A DNA stretch of 39,183 bases, from contig MCFG01000513.1 of assembly GCA_002104895.1 (NCBI GenBank), forward strand, positions 1 through 39,183, in the 5' to 3' direction. The position numbers and the translations under genes are program-made. This DNA comes from Anaeromyces robustus (lineage: Eukaryota > Neocallimastigomycota > Neocallimastigomycetes > Neocallimastigales > Neocallimastigaceae). Positions within the stretch are counted from its first letter, which is position 1; each line of letters starts with the position of its first letter. The notes under the pieces were generated by a model, which was given only the letters and a program-made list of their open reading frames with translations, searched no databases and was not told where the DNA came from. Below, piece by piece: positions 24,916-30,916 of this stretch.

Positions 24916-26131
24916 TTAAAGGAAACCAGTATCAGTTAAGAATTTTTGTTTATCTGGAGTAAGAGAATTCCAGAGAGTTTGCTTAGCATTTTCATCACAT
25001 TGAGATAAAATGCCTTTCATAGTATTTATCATGTAAGTGGTCATTTCAACAGAAAGTATTTGAGATGTTACAACATCAGTAAATATACCAACAAGTTTTG
25101 GAAGATTATTTTGTGTTAATATTATTGGATTACGAGCTTCTAATAATTCCAATCTATAAAAAAAAATAGTTAATTTAAAATAAAATATATATTAATTATT
25201 AACAAATGTTAATTTAATATAATCAATATAAAAAATAAAATAAAAATAAAAATAAAATAAATAATTATAATCAGTAGTTGTGTGTGTGTAATAGTGTCCA
25301 CAGTACATAAAAGTTAATAAAAAAAATTTCCTTTTAACTAAATTAAATCACTTTTTCAAGAATTCAATTTAAATTAAAAATACTCTTTTTTTTATTAACA
25401 ATTAAATTCAGAATTGCAGAATAACTTGTCATCATAATAATTATTTATTTATTTTTTAACATATAATATATAATTTATAAAACAAAATAATAATAATAAT
25501 AATTATAAAAAGCTAAAATAAAAAAAAAATAAAAAATAAAAATTATAGGAAAACTTACAAATATTCATAAGTTTGTTCAGCTTCGTCAATATCTTCTAAT
25601 ATTGGAAGAGCATTAAACCATATTGGTAAAACTTCATTAACATTAAATTGACTATTATTATATCTACATATTTTTCCTAATGCTGATATACAAATTTCAG
25701 TAGCCAAAACATTTTCTGGTTTACGTGAATTTGGATCATTAATAACAGCAACTAAAGCTGGTAATGAAGCAGCACAAGCTTGAGCATAAACTTCACCACC
25801 AAATTTAGCACAAAGACCAATACCACATGCAGCAGTATGTCTTATATCAGCAGTTGGATTAGATATACCACTAACCATCTTTTCTAAGAAGTGACCTTGG
25901 TATTCCCATGAAGCACCTTGAGTGAATTCAATTAAATCGGCATATACACAGAATGCCCATTGTATAGCAGCAATATCATTTATTTCATTCTAAAAAATAA
26001 TAATGATAATAATAAACAATAATTATATATAATATATAAATAATAAATATATAATAAATTATTAAAAAAAATATTAATTATTTAGAATAATATTTAAATA
26101 TAGATATATTTCCTAATTAATTTATTTCTAT

Positions 26132-26186
<55 letters not shown>

Positions 26187-29100: not shown

Positions 29101-30916
29101 TGTTGGAATGTTGGACTCTTACGAACTAAAGATGGGATACTTTCAGAAATGGTAAGTAATAATTCAAGAGCAGTTTGTCTGGTAGCTAAATATTAATTAT
29201 TATTAAATATATAATTATAAATTAATAAATTTTTTAAATTAATATTATGATTCTTTTTCTTTTTTTATCTAACAAAAATTATATTTTTATTTTCTACTTA
29301 CAATCTTCGAATTTTTCATTCTTCATTAATTCAGTCATGAAAGTAATAACATCTTCTAAAACACTCTTTAAACATTTTGGAATATGATCAGCGAGATCAA
29401 TTAAATAAATAATACCATTAAATAATGAATCTTCTCCAGCTTCATTAACAAGTGGTGGAAGAACCTATAGAAAAAATTATATTAATAAAATTAATTAATT
29501 AATTAATTAATTAATTAATAAAAATTATCATAAAAATATATATGCATATGTAAATATATAAAGTCTAATTTTTTATCAGTAATATGTGTGTGTGTAGAAT
29601 ATCAACCTATCCTACATATTTTTTTCTAAATATCGGTCATTATAATAAATACAATGATTATTATAAAGAAAAAAAAACATAGAAATCTGAATTGCAGAAT
29701 AACTTATCATCCTTTAAAAAATTAACTTTTTTCTATAAATATTTCATTTTATATATAAAAATTAAACTCACATTCAACATAAATGGAATTAAGTCAAACA
29801 TTTGTTGAACTTCATCTTGGTTCATTTCTAACATAAAGTTTACAACAGCTTCTAATGCTGAAATTCTAACCTATTATTTATTTTTGAATAAAAAATAGAA
29901 TTATTATTATTATTATTTAACATTAATGTGTTTTTTATGTGTATTTTTTTTTTTTGTTCTATTTTATTTTGATTCTTTTATAAAAATTATTTAAAAAATA
30001 TTTACTTGTTCACTAGCATCACTTAAAGCAATATTAAAGACATTCTTTAAAGTGGTAATGTCATAATCAGCAATTAAAGATGGAACATTAGAAATAATTT
30101 TGAAAGCACTTTCTCTATGTTCAGCTTTCTTAGATTCAGTACATTCAATTACGATTTGTAAAAGTTCTGGCCATTCTACTATATTATTAAAAAATCAAAT
30201 AAAATTTTTGAATTGTGATTTATTTAGTTTTGGAACTTTTATATTTCTAATTTATTTTATTTTTTTGTTGTTGTTGTTGTTGTAATCAATAATTATATTT
30301 ATTTTTGTAACTTACATCCTTTTGAAACAGTAATTTTATATAATTCTGAAATGGTATCACAAATCTTACGACGAACATATGAATCAGTTTCAACATTTAA
30401 TGATTCTAATAATTGCATTTGACAATATTGTCTAGCATCATCCGGTAATGAAGTCCATAAATATTCATTTTCACCTTTCAAATTTGATATTCTTCTTAAT
30501 AAAATAGCAGCATGAGAACGCATCTATATAAAATACAAAAATTACAAAATATATATTATTATATATTATATCTATATATTTACAATTTTAAATCTTTTTT
30601 TTAAATTAATTTAACATCCTTCGTATAAAAAAAAATCACTACTTTATTGGTTTTTCTCAATAAATTTATTATGATTTTAAAAAATAAAACAAAAAATTAA
30701 CAAATAAGTAAATAAAAATAAATAAAAATTTACTTGATTATCTATATGATTTCTAGCAATGTTTGATAAACCAGTTAATAATAAAACTGGTTGCTTGGCC
30801 ATCCATTCATTATTTAATTGTTCTTCAGCAGCATTTCTTTGTTCATTATTTGAATCTTTTAATTGACATAATAAATTAGCAAGTTGAACAACAACTTCGT
30901 TTAAACTATTATCCAT
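24916..30916 (-). CDS. Importin beta-3 type nuclear transport receptor (IPO5/Kap121)
   Basis: Karyopherin that carries cargo such as ribosomal proteins and histones into the nucleus, released by Ran-GTP. Fifteen exons in transcript order: 30916-30734, 30523-30316, 30178-30006, 29870-29772, 29464-29302, 29185-29028, 28925-28699, 28367-28013, 27865-27688, 27526-27365, 27216-26923, 26697-26585, 26504-26214, 25989-25559, 25153-24916. Junctions are all GT-AG and in frame; total 1090 aa, against 1097 in human IPO5. HEAT-repeat solenoid throughout. Signatures: [12 protein letters not shown] and [12 protein letters not shown] in exon 2, [14 protein letters not shown] with SAIGEGC in exon 7, [19 protein letters not shown] in exon 8, [15 protein letters not shown] [14 protein letters not shown] in exon 9, DGWEF at about 649-653, MLVCYAQEL and VPLLKFYF, an acidic loop at about 812-832, and [18 protein letters not shown] near the C-terminus. 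Introns 4, 7 and 14 are its longest and each hosts a snoRNA. Confidence 0.97.
25262..25446 (-). ncRNA. Box C/D snoRNA copy 1 (5.8S guide), importin intron 14
   Basis: Sense-strand RNA inside the intron 25154-25558. Perfect box C ATGATGA at 25435-25429, then the guide ATTCTGCAATTC (25422-25411) ending in a perfect D' box CTGA at 25411-25408. A GTGATTT stretch further on may be C'. Box D CTGA lies at 25274-25271, preceded by an ACAC repeat and AACTA. Flanks AATAATT and AATTATT can form a terminal stem. The guide is complementary over 12 nt to GAATTGCAGAAT of 5.8S rRNA; the fifth base upstream of D' pairs with the G of AATTG, the human Gm75 position served by SNORD96. It is the only copy with textbook C and D' boxes. 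The C-to-D span of about 165 nt is long for the class. Confidence 0.8.
26130..26187 (-). repeat. (ATTT)n microsatellite in importin intron 13
   Basis: About 14 tetranucleotide copies lying 27 bp from the donor of the exon ending at 26214. Confidence 0.9.
28476..28633 (-). ncRNA. Box C/D snoRNA copy 2 (5.8S guide), importin intron 7
   Basis: Sense strand, in the intron 28368-28698. Box C reads AAGATGA (28625-28619), with the bulged second base changed from T. Then ACAAG-type spacing and the guide ATTCTGCAATTC (28612-28601), followed by a variant D' CAGA. Box D CTGA is at 28486-28483, preceded by ATGTTCACACCCA. Terminal stem: AGTTTC upstream pairs with GAAATT after box D (six pairs, one G-U). 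A second CTGA lies inside at about 28505-28502 (ATGCTGACATG). The 5.8S guide is identical to the other two copies while the rest has diverged. Span C to D is about 140 nt. Confidence 0.78.
29566..29724 (-). ncRNA. Box C/D snoRNA copy 3 (5.8S guide), importin intron 4
   Basis: Sense strand, in the intron 29465-29771. Box C reads AGGATGA (29713-29707), again altered only at the second base. The same guide ATTCTGCAATTC (29700-29689) leads into D' CAGA. Box D CTGA is at 29579-29576, preceded by an ACAC repeat and ATATTA. The boxes are closed by a perfect 10-bp terminal stem, TAATTTTTTA (29724-29715) with TAAAAAATTA (29575-29566), one base from box C and directly next to box D. This stem is the strongest structural support among the three copies. 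Confidence 0.83.

What the first reader, a model, noticed from the sequence alone, without database searches (positions are those of the whole stretch)
25262..29724. Three intronic C/D snoRNAs in one importin gene share a guide for 5.8S rRNA
Introns 4, 7 and 14 of the importin beta gene each contain, on the sense strand, box C, the guide ATTCTGCAATTC, a D' box, and a box D with a flanking stem. The guide is complementary over 12 nt to the highly conserved GAATTGCAGAAT of 5.8S rRNA. By the D+5 rule the target is the G that is Gm75 in human 5.8S, guided there by SNORD96. From memory, budding yeast 5.8S lacks this methylation, so its guide in a fungus would be notable. These are also the three longest introns of the gene (307, 331 and 405 bp, against 80-225 for the rest), as expected if each carries cargo. 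The guide is invariant while the rest has drifted, which implies selection.
Basis: partly seen in the sequence, partly recalled or inferred. Interest (0 to 1): 0.88.

Follow-up and report, generated by a model that had tools for sequence, protein, structure and literature searches.

The report
Three intronic 5.8S methylation-guide snoRNAs
One nuclear-import gene of a gut-fungus-like genome carries, in its three longest introns, three small RNAs that look built to direct a methyl mark onto 5.8S ribosomal RNA at a spot known to be marked in humans and Arabidopsis but not in the two model yeasts.

Summary
The gene encodes importin-5/Kap121 (15 exons; 96% identical to a Piromyces finnis protein); intron numbers and lengths are as stated. 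Introns 4, 7 and 14 each contain, on the sense strand, a box C (GATGA core), a guide complementary over 13-14 nt to the best 5.8S copy in the genome, a D' box 17 nt after box C, a long internal hairpin, box D and a pairing terminal stem. A scan with boxes and stem only (rules set after seeing the candidates) finds these three in the window, none in 200 kb of other sequence of this genome and none in 200 shuffles. Box D lies 111, 115 and 117 nt from the 3' splice site. By the D+5 rule the target is the equivalent of human 5.8S Gm75. I conclude they are box C/D snoRNAs guiding this methylation. Corrections: only intron 14 has a textbook box C and D'. The guide sits in the D' slot; Rfam's SNORD96 has it beside box D, so the target is shared but family membership is not shown. 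No RNA or methylation data were available, and no relative could be compared. A new member of a known kind, at an unexpected site for a fungus.

The parts
24916..30916 (-). Host gene: importin-5 / Kap121-like nuclear import receptor, 15 exons, 1090 aa
   Evidence: Gene model; Pfam TPR_IPO5, Importin_rep_4 and _6; PDB Importin-5 E 1.1e-228; 1046/1091 identical to P. finnis protein
29465..29771 (-). Intron 4 (307 nt)
29566..29724 (-). snoRNA copy in intron 4 (about 159 nt with terminal stem)
29707..29713 (-). box C of intron-4 copy, AGGATGA (second base not U)
29690..29701 (-). D' guide of intron-4 copy, TATTCTGCAATT; with the first two bases of D' 14 nt complementary to 5.8S
29686..29689 (-). 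D' box CAGA of intron-4 copy
29576..29579 (-). box D CTGA of intron-4 copy; 111 nt before the 3' splice site
29715..29724 (-). terminal stem 5' arm TAATTTTTTA (intron 4)
29566..29575 (-). terminal stem 3' arm TAAAAAATTA (intron 4)
28368..28698 (-). Intron 7 (331 nt)
28464..28645 (-). snoRNA copy in intron 7 (about 182 nt with terminal stem)
28619..28625 (-). box C of intron-7 copy, AAGATGA (second base not U)
28602..28613 (-). D' guide of intron-7 copy, TATTCTGCAATT; with the first two bases of D' 14 nt complementary to 5.8S
28598..28601 (-). D' box CAGA of intron-7 copy
28501..28507 (-). candidate box C' ATGCTGA (one mismatch to RUGAUGA) in intron-7 copy, by eye
   Evidence: sequence
28483..28486 (-). 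box D CTGA of intron-7 copy; 115 nt before the 3' splice site
28627..28645 (-). terminal stem 5' arm (intron 7)
28464..28482 (-). terminal stem 3' arm (intron 7)
25154..25558 (-). Intron 14 (405 nt)
25260..25445 (-). snoRNA copy in intron 14 (about 186 nt with terminal stem)
25429..25435 (-). box C ATGATGA of intron-14 copy (consensus)
25412..25423 (-). D' guide of intron-14 copy, TATTCTGCAATT; with the first base of D' 13 nt complementary to 5.8S
25408..25411 (-). D' box CTGA of intron-14 copy
25271..25274 (-). box D CTGA of intron-14 copy; 117 nt before the 3' splice site
25437..25445 (-). terminal stem 5' arm AATAATTAT (intron 14)
25260..25268 (-). terminal stem 3' arm ATAATTATT (intron 14)

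Best explanation
The three introns each carry one paralogous box C/D snoRNA of about 160-190 nt. Inferred steps: the intron is spliced out and debranched, exonucleases trim it back to the terminal stem held by Snu13/Nop58/Nop56/fibrillarin bound at the C/D kink-turn, and the mature snoRNP pairs its D'-slot guide (5'-UAUUCUGCAAUU-3') with 5.8S rRNA so that fibrillarin methylates the 2'-OH of the G pairing with the fifth base before D'. That G is the equivalent of human Gm75 and Arabidopsis Gm79. Three copies in one gene (importin-5, by general knowledge an import receptor for ribosomal proteins) would raise dosage or give redundancy. Shown from sequence: anatomy, complementarity, intron position, shared core. 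Inferred: expression, processing, methylation, dosage.
For: Complementarity of 13-14 nt to the genome's best 5.8S copy in the sense direction in 3 of 14 introns; in the other 11 the longest is 6-8 nt, like the shuffle means. D' starts 17 nt after box C in 3 of 3, which puts D+5 on the same C. Terminal stems of three different sequences pair: shuffled flanks do as well in 1.4% (intron 4), 0.02% (intron 7) and 0 (intron 14) of 5000 trials. Folds z = -3.61, -3.90, -3.74; 0, 0 and 1 of 200 shuffles fold as well. The boxes-plus-stem scan without the guide finds 3 in the window, 0 in 200 kb of same-genome control and 0 in 200 shuffles. Box D to 3' splice site is 111/115/117 nt while the 5' distance varies 58/73/123. 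From GATGA to the end of D' 23 of 26 columns are invariant; of the other 200 columns of the alignment 41 are, each of them A or T. The three longest of 14 introns carry them (1 in 364 by chance).
Against: Box C in introns 4 and 7 departs from RUGAUGA at its second base, and D' is CAGA in both; a near-consensus C' was seen only in intron 7. Box C to box D spans 138-165 nt, longer than in D. discoideum (50-97; PMC8817022 passages) and than the 69-125-nt Neurospora box C/D RNAs in the part of the table I saw. No Rfam family matches the region at gathering score and SNORD96 has no match on this contig, though the U14 model also finds nothing in this genome, so that says little. No target could be tested for the box D slot: no 18S was found and the SSU and LSU family searches did not complete. 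No RNA, methylation or relative's data. The scan rules and cut-off were set after seeing the three.
Confidence: 0.85

Rival explanations
1. They are box C/D RNAs that pair with 5.8S but act as folding or processing chaperones (as U14 or snR190 are said to act, from recall), without methylating the G.
For: They are long, with a large internal hairpin; two of three D' boxes are non-consensus; the two yeasts manage without a 5.8S methyl mark.
Against: The guide-to-D' register is identical in the three and puts D+5 on a G that is methylated in human and Arabidopsis.
Confidence: 0.1
2. Only the intron-14 copy is functional; introns 4 and 7 hold decaying duplicates. (Compatible with the best explanation for intron 14.)
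For: Consensus box C and CTGA D' only in intron 14.
Against: 23 of 26 core columns are invariant although the rest has diverged; stems in introns 4 and 7 still pair; both keep 14 nt of complementarity, one more than intron 14.
Confidence: 0.15
3. The intronic elements serve the host gene (splicing or feedback on importin-5), and the 5.8S match is used to sense rRNA or ribosome supply.
For: The copies lie in one gene whose product is, from general knowledge, an import receptor for ribosomal proteins.
Against: The anatomy is that of a guide snoRNA; nothing I saw in the sequence points to a splicing role, though this was not searched for specifically.
Confidence: 0.04
4. Chance patterns in AT-rich introns.
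For: The window is 15% GC, so A/T stems arise easily; the intron-4 stem is matched by 1.4% of shuffled flanks; shuffles of two other introns once reached 13 and 15 nt of 5.8S complementarity.
Against: 0 of 200 shuffles and 0 in 200 kb of control sequence give even one box-and-stem element; the box C + guide pattern was found at these three places only.
Confidence: 0.01

Closest known systems
SNORD96 (Rfam RF00055; human U96), guide of 5.8S Gm75
   Same: Same antisense core CUGCAAUU (Rfam consensus) and same predicted methylated G; box C/D RNA. That SNORD96 guides Gm75 is from the finding and recall.
   Different: In the Rfam consensus the antisense core lies 4 positions before the 3' stem arm, that is beside box D; here it is in the D' slot. 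The model is 85 positions long, these RNAs about 160-190 nt; no match on this contig.
Neurospora crassa CD29 (5.8S Am42 and U2 guide)
   Same: Fungal intronic box C/D snoRNA with a D' guide for 5.8S (PMC2780460).
   Different: Different 5.8S site; the Neurospora study predicts one methyl on 5.8S only.
Plant guide of 5.8S Gm79
   Same: Same site as human Gm75 (PMC8351944).
   Different: The plant RNA's sequence was not compared here.

Membership tests
box C/D snoRNA | box D (CUGA) near the 3' end | tested here: met
   CTGA in 3 of 3
box C/D snoRNA | box C (RUGAUGA) near the 5' end | tested here: inconclusive
   Consensus in 1 of 3; GATGA core in 3 of 3, second base not U in introns 4 and 7
box C/D snoRNA | terminal stem bringing C and D together | tested here: met
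   Stem score against shuffled flanks: p 0.0144, 0.0002, 0 of 5000
box C/D snoRNA | antisense element of 10 nt or more directly upstream of D or D' | tested here: met
   13-14 nt to own 5.8S copy, running 1-2 bases into D'
box C/D snoRNA | internal C' and D' boxes | tested here: inconclusive
   D' CTGA in one, CAGA in two; a near-consensus C' seen by eye only in intron 7
box C/D snoRNA | stable RNA bound by fibrillarin and core proteins | not testable with these tools
   No RNA data
SNORD96 (RF00055) | score over the Rfam gathering cut-off | tested here: not met
   0 window matches; in the genome search 6 weak matches, none on this contig or over cut-off; 49 of 20,151 first-look candidates were scored
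SNORD96 (RF00055) | 5.8S antisense element in the box D slot | tested here: not met
   Here in the D' slot; Rfam consensus shows the box D slot
SNORD96 (RF00055) | directs 2'-O-methylation of 5.8S G75 | not testable with these tools
   Predicted by the D+5 rule only

The most novel reading that the evidence does not exclude
An early-branching (gut) fungus keeps the 5.8S Gm75 mark that the model yeasts lack, using a guide RNA not recognisably SNORD96 (guide in the other slot), kept in triplicate inside a ribosome-supply gene; the mark would then be ancestral to plants, animals and fungi, lost in yeasts, and served by replaceable guides.
Probability: 0.5. Interest if true: 0.6.

Novelty: new member of a known kind. 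Interest (0 to 1): 0.5.

Why it matters
It predicts a specific methyl mark on 5.8S in a fungal lineage, where the papers I opened report none at this site, and so makes the age and loss of that mark directly testable by one RiboMeth-seq run. It also suggests that general RNA-family models miss C/D snoRNAs in very AT-rich genomes, and gives a search recipe (box C, 17 nt, D', about 114 nt from box D to the 3' splice site) for finding others.

Tried and rejected
Rfam at gathering score gave 0 matches in the window; at E up to 10 it gave 2 weak, unrelated matches in the gene region. SNORD96 genome-wide gave 6 sub-threshold matches elsewhere; I looked at 2 of these 6 loci and nothing supports them beyond the weak score. 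The U14 control also found nothing (541 first-look candidates, 99 scored), so Rfam silence was set aside. Box D-slot guide: tested only against 5.8S; best matches 6, 7 and 6 nt, reached by 81%, 24% and 94% of 500 shuffles for introns 4, 7 and 14. 18S: no match to a universal 18S pattern with up to 3 mismatches; SSU and LSU family searches did not complete, so 18S/28S targets stay untested. Relatives: the core pattern gave 0 matches in the bacterial/archaeal and the viral collections, as expected for a fungus; by the tool texts no relatives of this genome are held and metagenome scans were capped at none.

A SNORD96-type site elsewhere: CTGCAATTCTGA has one other place, C756. There 11 nt match 5.8S with CTGA in the box D position, and GTGATGA and AAGATGA lie 190 and 88 nt upstream (C to D); but the flanks do not pair (stem scores 6 and 5, against 23-34 in the three), and the opposite strand reads as a long open frame with a repeated SLTDK peptide. 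I take it for coding sequence, but a box-D-slot guide there is not excluded.

No covariance model of the three was made, because three sequences are few. Limits of my controls: the box-and-stem scan and its cut-off (23, the lowest of the three) were set after seeing the candidates; the 200-kb control is 20 stretches of 10 kb, 19 of them contig starts, which may be unlike gene-rich interiors. The automatic alignment does not line up the box D regions.

Full report
Host gene. The window is one whole contig (39,183 b, 15% GC) of a 70.17-Mb, 769-contig genome. A splice-aware model on the minus strand (30916 to 24916) gives 15 exons and 1090 aa. Pfam and PDB name it importin-5 / importin beta-3. 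The best relative is a Piromyces finnis protein, 1046 of 1091 residues identical over its full length with one gap inside exon 2; the alignment runs without gaps over all 14 junctions and places the genome near anaerobic gut fungi (inference). The 14 introns are 210, 137, 135, 307, 116, 102, 331, 147, 161, 148, 225, 80, 224 and 405 nt; the finding's numbers are exact. Introns 4, 7 and 14, the three longest, carry the elements (1 in 364 by chance).

The target. Five 5.8S-like loci were found (39 of 842 first-look candidates scored, so a lower bound); the best (153 bits) reads GTGTGAATTGCAGAATACGTG. Two of the five keep the exact target; the other three are changed or lack it. I found no complete rDNA unit: a 9.9-kb stretch around the best copy shows 5.8S only, and two others have LSU pieces beside them. 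A universal 18S pattern finds nothing, so the rDNA array seems missing from the assembly and the true 5.8S is assumed to equal the best copy at this place.

Complementarity. On the sense strand, introns 4 and 7 match 14 nt and intron 14 matches 13 nt of this 5.8S, against 6-8 nt in the other 11 introns; 40 shuffles of each of these three introns reach at most 11 (shuffles of introns 10 and 12 once reached 15 and 13). The 13-mer TATTCTGCAATTC was found at 8 places in the genome: 3 here, 2 antisense to 5.8S copies, 3 elsewhere with no GATGA in the 40 nt before it. Box C + spacer + guide with up to 3 mismatches was found at these three places only.

Anatomy. Intron 14: box C ATGATGA 25435-25429, D' CTGA 25411-25408, box D CTGA 25274-25271. 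Intron 7: AAGATGA 28625-28619, CAGA 28601-28598, CTGA 28486-28483. Intron 4: AGGATGA 29713-29707, CAGA 29689-29686, CTGA 29579-29576. In each, 17 nt separate box C from D'. Box C first base to box D last base is 165, 143 and 138 nt. Box D ends 117, 115 and 111 nt before the 3' splice site, while the distance from the 5' splice site varies (123, 73, 58). Terminal stems differ in sequence but pair in each; shuffled flanks pair as well in 0, 0.02% and 1.4% of 5000 trials. Each folds better than shuffles (introns 14, 7, 4: z -3.61, -3.90, -3.74; 0, 0 and 1 of 200 shuffles as good), with long hairpins between D' and box D. In the alignment of the three, 23 of 26 columns from GATGA to the end of D' are invariant; of the other 200 columns 41 are, each A or T.

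Control scan. GATGA, then D' (CTGA or CAGA) 12-22 nt on, then CTGA within about 220 nt, then a terminal stem as good as the weakest of the three: 3 in the window, these three; 0 in 200 kb from 20 other contigs; 0 in 200 shuffles of the window. The rules were fixed after seeing the candidates, so this shows rarity, not a blind discovery rate.

Meaning. The fifth base before D' pairs with the G of AAUUG-CAG, position 74 of the 155-nt copy (hand count), the equivalent of human G75. From passages of papers: human 5.8S Gm75 was 92% methylated and S. pombe 5.8S has a single pseudouridine as its only modification (PMC4605285); S. cerevisiae has no 2'-O-methyl in 5.8S (PMC8393311); Arabidopsis Gm79 is the same site (PMC8351944); a plant review lists human Gm75 beside plant sites with no yeast entry (PMC11542601); Neurospora has one predicted 5.8S methyl, Am42, seen by primer extension, and 45 of its 55 box C/D RNAs are intronic (PMC2780460, passages, section 6); Trichophyton predictions name 5.8S Gm87 and Cm137 (PMC3890542; I did not align the numbering). 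A Chaetomium ribosome paper says its modifications were not yet analysed (PMC8789840). Another paper states that most fungal snoRNAs are independently transcribed (PMC12309372).

Not seen in print. Searches: 53 papers, 25 listed; 10; 5; 2; 42, 15 listed; 0; 6; 18, 10 listed; 2. In these listings and in passages of the ten papers I opened (the eight above, PMC5122169 and PMC8817022) I saw no fungal guide for this site and nothing on snoRNAs of anaerobic fungi; subscription papers are largely not held, and supplements were not read.

Family. The Rfam SNORD96 consensus has the same CUGCAAUU core near its 3' end, 4 positions before the closing stem arm, so beside box D; here it is beside D'. There is no Rfam match at gathering score, but U14 also fails in this genome, so this says little. 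The fair statement is: same target, other slot, relationship unknown. One SNORD96-like site on another contig (C756: 11-nt match, CTGA in the box D position, box-C-like motifs upstream) has no terminal stem and lies opposite an open frame; I think it is coding sequence.

Open. Segments before box D are CA-rich in introns 14 and 4 (TACACACACACA...TACTGAT in both) and TTCACACCCA in intron 7, which suggests common descent of the whole RNA; their pairing to 5.8S is no better than shuffles, and 18S/28S could not be tested. The weaker boxes of introns 4 and 7 leave open that they are less active.

Changed on recheck: the box C membership row is now inconclusive, the C756 site is reported in full, candidate caps and paper listings are stated.

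Noticed in passing
25275-25300, 29580-29600, 28487-28500 (minus strand): CA-rich segment just before box D shared by the intron 14 and 4 copies, with a variant in intron 7; its target is unknown.
   Followed up: partly
L002-L006 (G000 C523, C343, C42, C136, C305): Five dispersed 5.8S-like copies of decreasing score, two with adjacent LSU fragments; no complete rDNA unit or 18S found in the assembly.
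   Followed up: partly
G000 C276, C545, C645 (L017, L023, L024): Three further exact copies of the 13-nt 5.8S complement with no GATGA in the 40 nt before it.
   Followed up: partly
L026 1420-1512 (G000 C756, about 77175-77266, +): A SNORD96-like arrangement: AAGATGA, 88 nt to CTGA, with 11 nt complementary to 5.8S in the box D slot; no terminal stem, opposite strand open.
   Followed up: partly
35190-37033 (+): Two ORFs match COG4 (conserved oligomeric Golgi subunit 4) in Pfam; 6 other ORFs given to the same call had no match.
   Followed up: no
26120-26190: Intron 13 holds a long ATTT microsatellite.
   Followed up: no
whole genome G000: The Rfam U14 model finds nothing at E up to 1 (99 of 541 candidates scored), although U14 is expected in eukaryotes; standard models seem weak in this AT-rich genome.
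   Followed up: no
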